Below are positions 32,774-37,072 of a stretch of DNA of 57,834 bases, piece after piece. Both the position numbers and the translations under genes were made by a program. Within the stretch, counting starts at the first letter, position 1, and each line of letters begins with the position of its first letter. The notes under the pieces were generated by a model, which saw only the letters and a list, made by a program, of their open reading frames with translations, did not search any database and had not been told where the DNA came from. Origin of the DNA: an uncultured Planctomycetaceae bacterium (GTDB lineage: Bacteria; Planctomycetota; Planctomycetia; Gemmatales; Gemmataceae); NCBI GenBank assembly GCA_937888715.1, contig CALARU010000386.1:1-57834 (forward strand), read 5' to 3'.

Positions 32774-33454
32774 ATGTTCATGGATTATCAACAAGAAACC
32801 GCTTGGGATTTACGATTAAACCTTTTGGGTACCCCTATTAGGGTGCACCCAATGTTTTGGATAGTCACCGCTATTCTGGGTTGGCCCTATTACACCATGA
32901 CCAATGACTTTACAGTATTACTAACCTGGATAATGGCGGTATTCTTCTCCATACTGGTTCATGAACTAGGGCATGTTTTTATGGGAAAATACTTCGGAAC
33001 ACAAGGTTGCATTGTACTGCATGGATTTGGTGGAGTGGCCATTGGTAGTAACAATTTGTCAAATCGGTGGAAAAGGATAGCCGTAACGCTTGCGGGTCCC
33101 GGAATACAACTCTTACTTTATGCTTTCATCTTGTTCCTATCAGAATCGAGGGTAATCCCTCACGAAAATGATGGGCCATGGTTAAAGGTAAATCTATTTA
33201 TCGGATTTCTACTTTTCATCAATTTGTACTGGCCAATATTAAACCTTTTACCGGTATTCCCGCTAGATGGCGGACAAGCATTACGCGATTTCCTAAGCTT
33301 GTTTTTAAGATCTGGAGATAAAATCACTTATACTTTATCAATAATTGTTTCTGTTTTAATGATTGTATACTTTGCCAAAACCGAGAGTTTTTTCATGATT
33401 TTTCTTTTTATCATGCTGGCTATGCAAAATATAGAGTTATTCAAAAGAGCTTAA
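32774..33454 (+). CDS. M50 family site-2-type intramembrane metalloprotease
   Basis: A 226-residue membrane protein with about six helices. The zinc motif HELGH is H63-E64-L-G-H67 inside a helix, and the third ligand D165 lies in LLPVFPLDGG, the NPDG-like motif. There are no PDZ or CBS domains, so it is a minimal M50B enzyme like those that cleave membrane regulators. It ends inside the last codons of the convergent ubiquitin-like operon (four-base overlap). Substrate unknown. Confidence 0.88.
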   Translation: MFMDYQQETAWDLRLNLLGTPIRVHPMFWIVTAILGWPYYTMTNDFTVLLTWIMAVFFSILVHELGHVFMGKYFGTQGCIVLHGFGGVAIGSNNLSNRWKRIAVTLAGPGIQLLLYAFILFLSESRVIPHENDGPWLKVNLFIGFLLFINLYWPILNLLPVFPLDGGQALRDFLSLFLRSGDKITYTLSIIVSVLMIVYFAKTESFFMIFLFIMLAMQNIELFKRA

Positions 33455-34617
33455 TTTGAACTGGAAAACTGCCGCAATTTTTTGAAAACATCTTGAACAC
33501 TCACATTTGCAGTGCTGGCAAAAACTTCAGCACTCGCAATTGTACCTTCTGCAGTAAACTGAACCGTTGGCTTTGAACCGAGCTTAATCATTGCAATGGA
33601 ATTTTTACCTGAAAGCACTTCGAAGTAGCTTATTTCCTTAAAAGATTCTGGCCCAAGATTAACTGGTGCGATAAGGGCAGGCGTACTAGTTGCTAGCACT
33701 TTGCCTTCCCAAAAGCAAAGAGGTTGATGAGAACCATGCAGATAGCCCTGGATCTTAATATCAGCAAATCCAACTAGGCCATCAACTTTTGTTCCAACCC
33801 AAAAAGTAGGGCCAAAACGAACCTCCGTCTCTAATTGTGGTAATTCGTCAACAAACTCCAACTCTCCATTTTTTTTCCAAACGACAAATGATTGCTTACT
33901 CACCACTATCATTTTAGAAAAAGAACTCGAAGTAATTCCTTGGCAAATCATCGAACCAATTTTTATACCTTCCAGCAAAAAAGAAATCTTCATGTTTCCT
34001 ATTTTTTTGGGCAAAGATCCAAGAGGAAAAACAATTGGAATAAAAGCTTTGGAACCTTCGATATTTGAAATTCTAGCAACCATAGTGGCGGGAATTCCCG
34101 ACCCGACATCAATTGATAATGAAGCATCTAAGTTCGATAGAAATGCTACCCCGTACTTCGATGAAAGCATTGCAGAAACGGAAACTCCTTTACACCCAGC
34201 CATGAAAAATGATTGGCAGGAAACAATCTGAGAATCAAAATTACAGTGTAGGGCAGGGGCGTGAACCTCAACACTTGCTAAAAAAGCCTCTTTTGTAAGA
34301 AAAGGAATCTCAATTTCCGAGATCAATTTCTTTTTAAAATAGATCTTTGCTTTGCTTTCCTTCGACAAATTATCTAATTGGAATTCAACTTTTCCGGCTT
34401 TATGCCCTTCGGCATCGTTGATGTGCAAATGATTTCCTGGGATTGCAAAAGATTTTCCCAGATGCAAACTAAAATCTGAAGCGGAACAGAGAAATTTATC
34501 AGGGAAACGAATTGCAACTTCCAGAAAAATCTTTTCTGCAAACCAGGGTATTATGGGGCTTAAAACTTTTAATCCATTGGATTCATAGCCCAGTTGCAAT
34601 GCTTTGTTTTCGGTCAT
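33451..34617 (-). CDS. Unrecognised protein of the ubiquitin-like operon
   Basis: A 388-residue protein that I do not recognise. It looks mostly beta-stranded throughout, with short alternating hydrophobic segments, no signal peptide, no membrane helix and no obvious catalytic motif. Three cysteines cluster around residues 124-140 (HCNFDSQIVSCQSFFMAGC), a possible metal or redox site. The last 15 residues form a short polar helix. Its ATG overlaps the E1 stop codon (ATGA), so it is almost certainly translated together with the E1 and works in the same system. It could be a target, scaffold or effector. Confidence 0.75.
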   Translation of the reverse strand: MTENKALQLGYESNGLKVLSPIIPWFAEKIFLEVAIRFPDKFLCSASDFSLHLGKSFAIPGNHLHINDAEGHKAGKVEFQLDNLSKESKAKIYFKKKLISEIEIPFLTKEAFLASVEVHAPALHCNFDSQIVSCQSFFMAGCKGVSVSAMLSSKYGVAFLSNLDASLSIDVGSGIPATMVARISNIEGSKAFIPIVFPLGSLPKKIGNMKISFLLEGIKIGSMICQGITSSSFSKMIVVSKQSFVVWKKNGELEFVDELPQLETEVRFGPTFWVGTKVDGLVGFADIKIQGYLHGSHQPLCFWEGKVLATSTPALIAPVNLGPESFKEISYFEVLSGKNSIAMIKLGSKPTVQFTAEGTIASAEVFASTANVSVQDVFKKLRQFSSSN

Positions 34618-35426
34618 AAACCCAACCCGCCTGAAAGTTCTTTCAACTTTTTTTGAAGCAAATCATCGACGTCAGCAACTACTTCAGTCGGCCGACGGCA
34701 GAACAAGCAGTTTTCATTTTTTGAAACGTTAACAACAATCTTTTTTAGGCTTTCTGAAAAAATCCCTTCGACTTTCTGCAAAGGAAGCAAAAAGGAAGAA
34801 GGTAGAATTTTTGCATCTAACAAATCCAAGGTTGCAAGTGCATGAAGCGCAGCAATAGATTGAATGGAAGCAAACGATGCGGGGATTCTTGCCTCTTCCA
34901 CTTGGCCAGACGGATTACTGTAGTCAGGCTTAAAATCTTTTGAATCCTTTGGGCCTTCCCGTTTTAAATAAGTACAAGCACAGGCATAGCAAGGCCCACC
35001 CGGAACAAATGTATGGACAAAACCACCAATGCCGCCGCTTAGCACTTCGCCCAAAGTCCATGGAATGCTATGTTCCCTCATTAAGGAGCACCAATGATAC
35101 TTTGCCTCTTCATTATCAACAGCGCAGACGCCAAAATCCGCACCCTTAATAGCATTATTTATTTGGTCTTGTTTATCAGGATCTTGCAGAAAAGCCTCAA
35201 TTGAAATTATCTCAAGATTAGTATTGCGATCTTTCAACCACTTAACTGCTGCCAGCAATTTAGATTTGCCAACATTATCTGAACTTAAAAGATGCCTAGG
35301 TAAATTATGTGGCTTAAGAAGATCCGGTTCGATAAGAGTAATCTTGGAAATGCGCATATCTCGCACCAGCATGTCGATAACAGACATACCACCACTCCCC
35401 AAACCGACCTGAACCAGATGAGCCAT
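34614..35426 (-). CDS. E1-like / ThiF-family activating enzyme
   Basis: A 270-residue ubiquitin-activating-type adenylyltransferase. The ATP-binding site shows G8-L-G10-S-G-G13, acidic E33/D35 (LIEPD), N41, R44, K54 and D104 (CAVDNEEA), as in MoeB/ThiF/E1. Two CxxC pairs, C146/C149 (CYAC) and C240/C243 (CLFC), should bind structural zinc as in ThiF. The thioester cysteine usually found after the first pair is not at its normal place; C151 is the only nearby candidate. There is no fused E2 or rhodanese. It abuts the E2 gene with no gap and overlaps the next gene by four bases. Confidence 0.88.
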   Translation of the reverse strand: MAHLVQVGLGSGGMSVIDMLVRDMRISKITLIEPDLLKPHNLPRHLLSSDNVGKSKLLAAVKWLKDRNTNLEIISIEAFLQDPDKQDQINNAIKGADFGVCAVDNEEAKYHWCSLMREHSIPWTLGEVLSGGIGGFVHTFVPGGPCYACACTYLKREGPKDSKDFKPDYSNPSGQVEEARIPASFASIQSIAALHALATLDLLDAKILPSSFLLPLQKVEGIFSESLKKIVVNVSKNENCLFCRRPTEVVADVDDLLQKKLKELSGGLGL

Positions 35427-35870
35427 TTATCGCGCCTCCGGCAAGGGCCATTCGCCCGATTGTTTCCAAATTTCATAACAGGCCAACCAACGCCAAGCAG
35501 CCATTACTGCAAAAATAACCGTGAAGGAAGCAGGATCCCACCGACTGGTTCTCCGAGTGCTGCCTTGTTTCCACAAGCAAAGTTGTTGGCCAGGTAACAG
35601 ATGTGGACACGGGTAATCCAACGCTGTTATCACCCTAGTTTCTGGGGGAATAAACGGATAGCCTGCCATTAGGCTTGTTTTTACCTCAAACACATTATGC
35701 GCAGGCTTAAGCTTATAGTTTAACGCCAATCCTTCAGCAGTAGGCTCGATCGTAATACGGTACTCAGGTTCCCTATCGCGGTTGTACTGCTCGATAACAG
35801 GAAACTCAACAGAAACAAGCCTACGCTTTGCAGATTCGTTTCGTAATAGAATCGGAATGTAGTCGTTCAT
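35427..35870 (-). CDS. Bacterial E2 ubiquitin-conjugating-like protein
   Basis: A 147-residue stand-alone E2 (UBC fold), the carrier that would receive a modifier from the E1 as a thioester. The strand-turn YPFIPPETRV (71-80) matches the conserved YPxxPP region. H90 (CPHLLPG) precedes the catalytic C98 in QLCLW, and W111 in SRWDPASF matches the conserved tryptophan after the active site. The final helices are Trp-rich (AAWRWLACYEIWKQSGEW). The N-terminus lacks nothing obvious. It starts ten bases after the 62-residue gene and ends immediately before the E1 start. Confidence 0.82.
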   Translation of the reverse strand: MNDYIPILLRNESAKRRLVSVEFPVIEQYNRDREPEYRITIEPTAEGLALNYKLKPAHNVFEVKTSLMAGYPFIPPETRVITALDYPCPHLLPGQQLCLWKQGSTRRTSRWDPASFTVIFAVMAAWRWLACYEIWKQSGEWPLPEAR

Positions 35871-35880
35871 CTACATACTT

Positions 35881-36069
35881 TTACAGCTTATAATGACATG
35901 GAACGGAACGAATGGCATTGATTACATCTTGTTCAGCGGATTCAACCGTACCTGAAACAAAAGAAGTATCTTTAGGATTCACATGAATCGGTTTGCCAGA
36001 TTCGGCATTATTACGAAGAGCCTCGTATAGGTTTTTTCTTTCATCATCGTTCAAAGGTCTAAAGTCCAT
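35881..36069 (-). CDS. 62-residue orphan protein of the ubiquitin-like operon
   Basis: A small protein placed where ubiquitin-like modifiers often sit, between the JAMM and E2 genes. The ATG at 36069 is firm: AAAGGA lies seven bases upstream, and the longer frame would run into the JAMM gene. Residues 5-25 (PLNDDERKNLYEALRNNAES) form a charged helix, a short strand KPIHVNP follows, then a second helix (SAEQDVINAIRSV) and the tail PCHYKL. I do not see a beta-grasp pattern or a C-terminal di-glycine. It may be an unusual modifier, a substrate or an adaptor. Confidence 0.7.
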   Translation of the reverse strand: MDFRPLNDDERKNLYEALRNNAESGKPIHVNPKDTSFVSGTVESAEQDVINAIRSVPCHYKL

Positions 36070-36091
36070 GACAAATCCTTTCGTAAAAAAA

Positions 36092-37072
36092 CTATTTTGC
36101 CAATTCAGCAAGAACCAAGTAAACGCCACGATCTACTTTATCTTCCTGAATATCGACTTCAAATAGTTGTTCGTTCTTCTCGAAGAAATATTGCACCTTA
36201 TCTTTAAAAATAAACACTAAAATTTTACCTAAAGAGCCCGCGAGGGGAATACTCAAGGTAAGTTGATGGCCTGAGGCGGATTTTGTTATAGCACAACTGG
36301 CTTTACTTTGCTGTGCAAGAACCTTTTCAATTTCGCTTGCATGAACTTCCATTGCATCCCAAACAACATGCAAAGGTTTGGCAAGATCCTCCCCCAAAGT
36401 CCAACGGATAGGCACTTTAACATAATTAGAATCACCGCTAGCAAGAGAAAACCAATCAAAACGCATTCCAGTCATGGAAAAAGTATTAATCGCAATCTTG
36501 GAGGCAAAATTACCACGGCTGGGTGAATCGTGATCAACCGTACCAATACCAAATACCCCTTGCTTTGCAGGTAAATTTTTAACCCATTGAATGTCGCCTT
36601 GATAATCTCCACCGGAAGGATGGCGCAATCTTCCGGGATGGGTGTGAAAAAGCCCAAGAACCTCTAATTTATCGTGAAGCTGACGCAAAAGCCTTCCAGC
36701 AACCACTTGAGCTTGGGAATTAAATTTAACATGGGTTGAACTTGCTTCCCTAAATTCTCCAGAAGGAACCGCAGCAACAACAACCGCATGCTTTTTTTCG
36801 CGATATCCCATCAAGAGCCAGCCGGTTTCTTCATCTCCGCGTTCTTGGTTTAAATGATTTTTATACCCTTCAACTAAAGTGTGCCCAACCCCCGAAGAAA
36901 TAAGCATGTATTTGATCGGCAAAAGATCGCGGGGCGGGATGGAAAGTAATTCGGCAGCTTTTGGGCCATATATAAGGTGGTTAAATTCTTTAAGTAAGCC
37001 ACTTATTTTATTAAGAAGTAAACTGGGAATGCCTCGAGTTGATCTGCTTTTCTCGCCATTTTCAGAAATCAT
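36092..37072 (-). CDS. JAMM/MPN+ metalloprotease (deubiquitinase-like) with C-terminal extension
   Basis: A 326-residue protein. The JAMM zinc site is complete: E82 (EETGWLLMG), H143-T-H145-P, S153 and D156 in HTHPGRLRHPSGGD, the HxHx7SxxD pattern of isopeptidases such as Rpn11. Residues 1-45 form a polar lead with a helix, the MPN domain spans about 50-195, and a C-terminal region of about 120 residues (205-326) is alpha/beta and unrecognised. In the family this activity cleaves modifiers from targets or trims their C-termini. The ATG at 37072 follows TGGA by six bases. First gene of the operon, 22 bases before the 62-residue gene. Confidence 0.88.
   Translation of the reverse strand: MISENGEKSRSTRGIPSLLLNKISGLLKEFNHLIYGPKAAELLSIPPRDLLPIKYMLISSGVGHTLVEGYKNHLNQERGDEETGWLLMGYREKKHAVVVAAVPSGEFREASSTHVKFNSQAQVVAGRLLRQLHDKLEVLGLFHTHPGRLRHPSGGDYQGDIQWVKNLPAKQGVFGIGTVDHDSPSRGNFASKIAINTFSMTGMRFDWFSLASGDSNYVKVPIRWTLGEDLAKPLHVVWDAMEVHASEIEKVLAQQSKASCAITKSASGHQLTLSIPLAGSLGKILVFIFKDKVQYFFEKNEQLFEVDIQEDKVDRGVYLVLAELAK

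What the first reader, a model, noticed from the sequence alone, without database searches (positions are those of the whole stretch)
35881..36069. A 62-residue protein in the modifier position with no di-glycine tail
It sits between the eraser and the E2, with a firm ribosome site, yet ends in PCHYKL and looks helix-strand-helix rather than beta-grasp. If it is the modifier, either a different C-terminal chemistry is used, or the terminal residues are trimmed, or conjugation occurs through another residue. It could instead be an adaptor or a substrate, with the real modifier encoded elsewhere.
Basis: partly seen in the sequence, partly recalled or inferred. Interest (0 to 1): 0.75.

Follow-up and report, generated by a model that had tools for sequence, protein, structure and literature searches.

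The report
Small bacterial modifier ending in tyrosine
A planctomycete bacterium keeps a ubiquitin-type enzyme set beside a tiny, strongly conserved protein that is not ubiquitin-shaped and ends in tyrosine instead of glycine, and some bacterial viruses carry copies of that tiny protein alone, so it is probably a new kind of protein tag.

Summary
The 62-residue gene is real, has a ribosome site, lies between a JAMM (JAB) peptidase and an E2, has no C-terminal glycine, and is modelled as helix-hairpin-helix with a loose tail. It is restricted to the order Gemmatales: 73 of 102 genomes have it, exactly the genomes that have the E1 and E2. None of 391 other planctomycete genomes has it. It lies beside the E2 in all 61 distinct loci. 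Its tail Ser-Val-Pro-x-His-Tyr is invariant; most copies stop exactly at Tyr60, and the rest carry 1-6 variable residues. The window's 'KL' is such a tail. No glycine can be exposed by trimming. A 595-kb phage and three predicted viral contigs encode the small protein; no E1 or E2 was found in the sequence searched. Two more carry larger proteins whose N-terminal segment ends in the same motif. Tyr60 is thus a recurrent junction, as in ubiquitin precursors and fusions. Best explanation: a protein modifier activated by the adenylating E1, passed to the E2 cysteine, and trimmed or removed by the JAMM where present. No chemistry has been shown. Closest precedents: type II CBASS and Pup, whose defining features are absent.

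The parts
35881..36069 (-). 62-aa candidate modifier (helix, beta-hairpin, helix, extended tail)
36076..36081 (-). AAAGGA Shine-Dalgarno-like site, 6 nt before the ATG of the 62-mer
   Evidence: sequence; purine-rich GGAG-type sites also stand before orthologues
35890..35907 (-). codons 55-60, the SVPCHY tail; S, V, P, H and Y invariant in all orthologues seen
35884..35889 (-). codons 61-62 (KL), variable extension beyond the conserved Tyr60, predicted to be trimmed
36092..37072 (-). JAMM/JAB metalloprotease, 326 aa, JAMM motif (E, HTHP, S-x-x-D) intact (predicted processing and removal enzyme)
   Evidence: Pfam Prok-JAB E=7.6e-8; invariant H143, H145, D156 and nearly invariant S153
35427..35870 (-). 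stand-alone E2-like protein, 147 aa; the only Cys invariant in all 26 orthologues is Cys98
   Evidence: CBASS E2 profile E=5.7e-8
35577..35579 (-). codon of E2 Cys98, predicted thioester cysteine
   Evidence: lies in the 'CL' motif that aligns with UFC1
34614..35426 (-). ThiF-type E1, 270 aa; ATP-site residues D35, N41, R44, K56, D104 and two CxxC pairs invariant or nearly so; no conserved catalytic Cys in the crossover region
   Evidence: Pfam ThiF E=7.7e-20
33451..34617 (-). 388-aa fast-evolving protein, predicted as tandem Ig-like beta-sandwich domains, no known family; linked to the E1 in most loci

Best explanation
The 62-mer is the modifier of a Gemmatales-specific ubiquitin-like conjugation system. 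Shown: it is a strongly conserved small protein, genetically inseparable from an E1 and E2, with an invariant C-terminal SVPxHY tail that is the junction in solo, tailed and larger phage versions. Inferred: the JAMM enzyme trims any residues after Tyr60; the E1 adenylates the carboxylate of Tyr60; because this E1 lacks the usual catalytic cysteine, the activated tail passes directly to Cys98 of the E2; the E2 attaches it to an amine of a target (unknown, perhaps with help from the Ig-like 388-aa protein); the JAMM enzyme can remove it again. Phages encode solo copies to feed, saturate or hijack the host system, or to tag their own proteins.
For: Co-occurrence is perfect: the 62-mer and the E1 occur in the same 73 of 102 order genomes and the E2 in those 73 plus one weak hit, even where the E1 has moved elsewhere in the genome. 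The 62-mer is directly upstream of the E2 in 61 of 61 distinct loci. The last six residues are the most constant part of the protein: S55, V56, P57, H59 and Y60 are invariant and C58 varies. 49 of 61 distinct genes stop exactly after Y60 and the others add 1-6 unrelated residues. Tails occur in 12 of 52 genomes with the JAMM gene and 0 of 21 without it (Fisher p=0.015, not corrected for kinship). A 595-kb phage (LR756511.1) encodes a 60-aa copy ending at HY, 72% identical to a Gemmatales query and 60% to the window's protein, and the same collection search gave no E2 or E1 match in it. Three predicted viral contigs carry solo copies and two carry larger proteins with the helix and tail near the N-terminus, the structural-looking part following directly. 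E1 ATP-site residues, the E2 cysteine and the JAMM motif are intact. The host motif is unique to this gene.
Against: No adenylation, thioester or conjugate has been shown. In CBASS, replacing the C-terminal glycine by bulky residues (V, R, W) blocked conjugation (PMC10097602), so a tyrosine tail would need a specially shaped E1 and E2. The JAMM gene is missing from a Gemmata-like genus and a few others although the rest is kept, so removal is not essential. The fold model is of moderate confidence. Conservation of the tail would also be expected of a docking motif.
Confidence: 0.57

Rival explanations
1. The 62-mer is a dedicated adaptor or activator of the E2 (or of E1 and E2); its C-terminal helix and SVPxHY tail are a docking motif, and the true modifier is another protein.
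For: It is always beside the E2, even when the E1 and JAMM genes lie elsewhere. A conserved terminal motif could be a docking peptide, and phage proteins carrying it inside longer chains could dock the same partner.
Against: No other small gene was seen to be consistently present in the locus. The clear ThiS/MoaD proteins of the genome have their own partner genes. Invariance up to the last residue, exact stopping at Tyr60 and short disposable tails fit a processed carboxyl end better.
Confidence: 0.17
2. The 62-mer is a carrier or precursor peptide, as in MccB, CysO or mycofactocin-type pathways: the E1 activates its C-terminus so that a small molecule is added or built there and the JAMM releases the product.
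For: The E1 profile matches MccB, which works on a C-terminal asparagine (established knowledge), at E=7e-8. A small peptide with an invariant C-terminal Tyr recalls mycofactocin precursors (from memory).
Against: The whole protein is conserved and not only a short core. Phages encode solo copies and carry the tail motif in larger proteins. No other biosynthetic enzyme is linked, a large clade lacks the peptidase, and an E2 is not part of such pathways.
Confidence: 0.12
3. The E1 and E2 use a separate ubiquitin-fold protein coded elsewhere, and the 62-mer is a substrate or regulator.
For: The genome has three clear ThiS/MoaD-like proteins.
Against: They are a ThiS-like protein next to the only other ThiF enzyme, a ThiS-ThiG-type long ORF, and MoaD next to a MoaE-like gene; none lies near this locus. 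A Ubl outside the ThiS profile was not excluded.
Confidence: 0.07

Closest known systems
Type II CBASS Cap2/Cap3 (E1-E2 plus JAB acting on a cGAS-like enzyme)
   Same: E1, E2 and JAB match CBASS profiles. There too the protein attached through its C-terminus is not beta-grasp and lacks a di-glycine (PMC10097602).
   Different: Here E1 and E2 are separate genes, no cyclase is in the operon, the conjugated candidate is a 60-residue dedicated protein, and it ends in Tyr where CBASS needs Gly or Ala.
Pup (pupylation) and UBact
   Same: Small non-ubiquitin-fold modifier, two helices with an extended C-terminal tail of 6-7 residues (PMC2588565).
   Different: No C-terminal Gly-Glu/Gln and no PafA-type ligase gene in the operon; an E1, E2 and JAMM instead.
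Bil operon (BilA-BilB-BilC-BilD)
   Same: Four-part layout of modifier, E2, JAB and E1 in bacteria (PMC11354881).
   Different: BilA has two ubiquitin-like domains and a C-terminal glycine, and its E1 has a catalytic-Cys domain; neither holds here.
Operon types 6a-6e of Iyer et al. 2006
   Same: Bacterial JAB, E1-like and E2-like gene clusters; 6d has a small modifier-like protein (PMC1779556).
   Different: In 6d the small protein is a predicted beta-grasp with C-terminal Gly; no 6a-6e type as described has this protein or the Ig-like protein, and the main text does not mention planctomycetes.
UFM1 cascade (UBA5, UFC1)
   Same: UBA5 is the best solved-structure match of the E1 (E=3e-10) and UFC1 the weak best of the E2 (E=0.03).
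   Different: UFM1 is a ubiquitin-fold protein ending in Gly (established knowledge); UBA5 uses a catalytic Cys that has no counterpart here.

Membership tests
Ubiquitin / ubiquitin-like proteins | beta-grasp fold | tested here: not met
   Model is helix, short hairpin, helix; moderate confidence (pLDDT 75, pTM 0.43). No Pfam, NCBIfam or PADLOC family match.
Ubiquitin / ubiquitin-like proteins | C-terminal Gly, native or exposed by processing | tested here: not met
   Residue 60 is Tyr in all copies; no conserved Gly within the last 15 residues of the Tyr60-ended protein.
Ubiquitin / ubiquitin-like proteins | partner E1, E2 and JAMM enzymes with intact active sites | tested here: met
   genomic co-occurrence (JAMM absent in 21 of the 73).
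Ubiquitin / ubiquitin-like proteins | covalent attachment to targets | not testable with these tools
   Needs biochemistry or proteomics.
Pup / UBact | C-terminal Gly-Glu/Gln | tested here: not met
   Tail is SVPxHY.
Pup / UBact | adjacent PafA-type ligase | tested here: not met
   Operon genes are ThiF, E2, JAB and an Ig-like protein.
Type II CBASS | cGAS/DncV-like cyclase as the conjugated protein | tested here: inconclusive
   None among the five operon proteins; the wider genome was not searched for one.
Type II CBASS | conjugated protein ends in Gly or Ala | tested here: not met
   Tyr60 in the 62-mer; criterion from PMC10097602.
Bil system | BilA with two ubiquitin-like domains | tested here: not met
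   62-aa single unit with no such domain.
MccB-type peptide adenylation | E1-like enzyme that adenylates a non-Gly C-terminus of a peptide | not testable with these tools
   E1 matches MccB at E=7e-8 over residues 5-249; activity unknown.

The most novel reading that the evidence does not exclude
A ubiquitin-type cascade (E1, E2, JAMM) that conjugates a non-ubiquitin-fold modifier through a C-terminal aromatic residue, in one bacterial order, with phages that carry the modifier alone or join its tail module to their own proteins.
Probability: 0.45. Interest if true: 0.92.

Novelty: new variant of a known kind. Interest (0 to 1): 0.78.

Why it matters
Known E1-E2 cascades activate a C-terminal Gly, or Ala in some CBASS systems. 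A conserved Tyr end would show that the cascade's chemistry is broader than believed and that the modifier need not be a ubiquitin fold. Viral copies and N-terminal versions of the modifier would be a bacterial parallel to viral ubiquitin and to ubiquitin fusions. The system is single-copy across most of an order known for unusual cell architecture, and it can be tested at once in existing proteome data.

Tried and rejected
Cys58-based conjugation or a metal site: rejected as a general rule because Cys58 is replaced by S, T or V. A buried glycine exposed by trimming: rejected, none in the tail. A host-wide leader motif: rejected, one copy per host genome, apart from one weak extra match in G013 that looks like chance. 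Wider spread in the phylum: none in 391 other genomes. Plasmids: none. Known fold for the 62-mer: Foldseek and VIA-align gave nothing significant, which does not prove a new fold. A prior report of E2 enzymes in Planctomycetes (Arcas et al. 2013, known only from a reference list) could not be read, so part of the E2 finding may not be new. Paper searches found no description of this system, but most subscription papers and preprints are not held.

Full report
OBSERVATION. The ORF at 35881-36069 (minus) encodes MDFRPLNDDERKNLYEALRNNAESGKPIHVNPKDTSFVSGTVESAEQDVINAIRSVPCHYKL, with AAAGGA six bases before the ATG. Gene order on the minus strand is JAMM/JAB (36092-37072), 62-mer, E2 (35427-35870), ThiF-type E1 (34614-35426), 388-aa protein (33451-34617). 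The small protein has no Pfam, NCBIfam or PADLOC match.

CONSERVATION. Relatives of the E2 were found only in the same order. In 27 longer loci the 62-mer was always found, directly upstream of the E2, and in most the full order JAB, 62-mer, E2, E1, 388-aa protein is kept. A scan of genome contigs gave 58 loci, with titles such as Gemmataceae, Gemmatales, Zavarzinella formosa and Limnoglobus roseus. A few record titles (Kuenenia, Bacteroidales, Singulisphaera, Isosphaera) look like mislabelled bins. Across 102 genomes of the order the 62-mer occurs in 73, the E1 in the same 73, the E2 in those 73 plus one weak hit, and the JAMM protein in 52, all within the 73. In several genomes (for example G029, G016, G475) the E1 lies elsewhere, but the 62-mer stays beside the E2. 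None of 391 other planctomycete genomes matched. dN/dS is about 0.17-0.20.

THE TAIL. In 54 distinct 60-residue versions S55, V56, P57, H59 and Y60 are invariant and position 58 is C, S, V or T; further sequences agree. Of 61 distinct genes 49 stop right after Y60; the rest add KL, GR, A, G, AG, AGV, AGI or AVVSGQ. So the window's ending 'KL' is a small local extension, and there is no glycine to expose. Tailed versions occur in 12 of 52 genomes with the JAMM gene and in 0 of 21 without it (six genomes of the window's group that the script's filter missed were counted). By taxonomy this rests on perhaps six tail origins and three JAMM losses, so it is suggestive only. E2 proteins also end at a constant place, so a constant end alone proves little; the point is that the end carries the most constant residues.

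ENZYMES. The E1 keeps the ATP-site residues (D35, N41, R44, K56, D104; assignment from established ThiF/MoeB knowledge) and two CxxC pairs, and its only other invariant cysteine is C101, in the 'CAVDN' strand, so a crossover-loop catalytic cysteine is missing. Its best solved-structure matches are UBA5 and MccB. The E2 has one strictly invariant cysteine, C98, and matches CBASS E2 profiles. The JAB protein keeps the JAMM residues. The 388-aa protein is fast evolving, modelled with good confidence as tandem Ig-like sandwiches.

FOLD. AlphaFold gives helix 8-24, a small hairpin, helix 42-55 and an extended tail. Foldseek and VIA-align found no convincing relative. This layout recalls Pup's bihelical unit with an extended tail (PMC2588565) but not its sequence or ligase.

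PHAGES. A scan of predicted viral contigs unexpectedly returned relatives. A 595-kb uncultured phage record, LR756511.1, encodes MEFRPLNDEERGNLLVALKGNAEKGKAILMNRKDTSFVGVQDEVTDEEVICAIKSVPVHY with its own ribosome site; searches of the phage collection gave no E2 or E1 match in it. Contigs G500 (33 kb), G502 (47 kb) and G503 (235 kb) encode solo copies. Complete contigs G500 and G502, and the 30 kb of G503 read, lack the E1, E2 and JAB. Contig G501 (36.6 kb, with a Mu-type portal, a major head protein and a terminase) encodes four different proteins with an N-terminal segment that ends in [DE]EVIxAI[KR][ST]VPxH[YHF] or a close variant, with structural-looking sequence right after; G504 has a fifth. 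Only the last helix and tail are clearly shared there; the N-terminal parts are basic and diverged. One 9.9-kb 'viral' contig (L224) carries JAB, 62-mer, E2 and E1 together and is probably host DNA. In hosts the motif occurs only in the 62-mer. The hosts of these phages were not established.

MECHANISM. The same residue closes the module as a natural stop codon, as the start of a short tail, and as the start of another protein part. That is the pattern of ubiquitin, its precursors and its fusions, and it makes Tyr60 the likely activated carboxylate. Predicted steps: JAMM trimming, E1 adenylation, direct transfer to E2 C98, attachment to an amine, JAMM removal. Only the genetic association and active-site conservation are shown; each chemical step is inferred. 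The strongest argument against is that the CBASS E1-E2 rejects bulky C-terminal residues (PMC10097602). The MccB match shows a distant relative that handles a non-Gly end.

ALTERNATIVES. An E2 adaptor, a carrier peptide, or a separate modifier remain possible. The genome's other ThiF enzyme sits with a ThiS-like protein, and the other two clear ThiS/MoaD hits are a ThiS-ThiG-type ORF and a MoaD next to a MoaE-like gene, so no orphan modifier of that family is apparent.

KNOWN OR NEW. E1-E2-JAB clusters in bacteria are known (PMC1779556; CBASS; Bil), and a 2013 paper reports E2 enzymes in Planctomycetes (title only seen). I found no description of this small protein, its tyrosine end or its phage copies in the library that could be searched. 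It works like a ubiquitin-type modifier but fails the fold and glycine criteria for that family, fails the tail and ligase criteria for Pup, and fails the tail criterion for CBASS.

Noticed in passing
L218/L219/L241/L242 (contig IMGVR_UViG_3300032893_000179, 36.6 kb): Four different proteins of one phage share an N-terminal segment ending in the host modifier's motif, directly followed by structural-looking sequence; they may be cleaved or recognised by the host system.
   Followed up: partly
L240 12001-12180 (LR756511.1, 595-kb uncultured phage): Huge phage encodes a full-length copy of the 62-mer; no E1 or E2 match in the record.
   Followed up: yes
window 33451-34617 (minus): Fast-evolving tandem Ig-like protein linked to the E1; about 20% identity between genera; no known family. 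Could be a target or a recognition factor.
   Followed up: partly
Gemmata-like genus g17 and others: JAMM gene not found while the 62-mer, E2 and E1 are kept; modification would lack this eraser there.
   Followed up: partly
window 32774-33454 (plus): M50-type membrane protease gene lies convergent to the operon in 12 of 61 distinct loci.
   Followed up: no
L060, L095, L098, L103, L116 record titles: Genome bins labelled Kuenenia, Singulisphaera, Isosphaera or Bacteroidales carry this Gemmatales operon; probably mislabelled or mixed bins.
   Followed up: no
G000:C312 80857-82203: ThiS-like protein and a second ThiF-type enzyme near a threonine-synthase-like ORF, a separate sulfur-carrier-type locus in the same genome.
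   Followed up: partly
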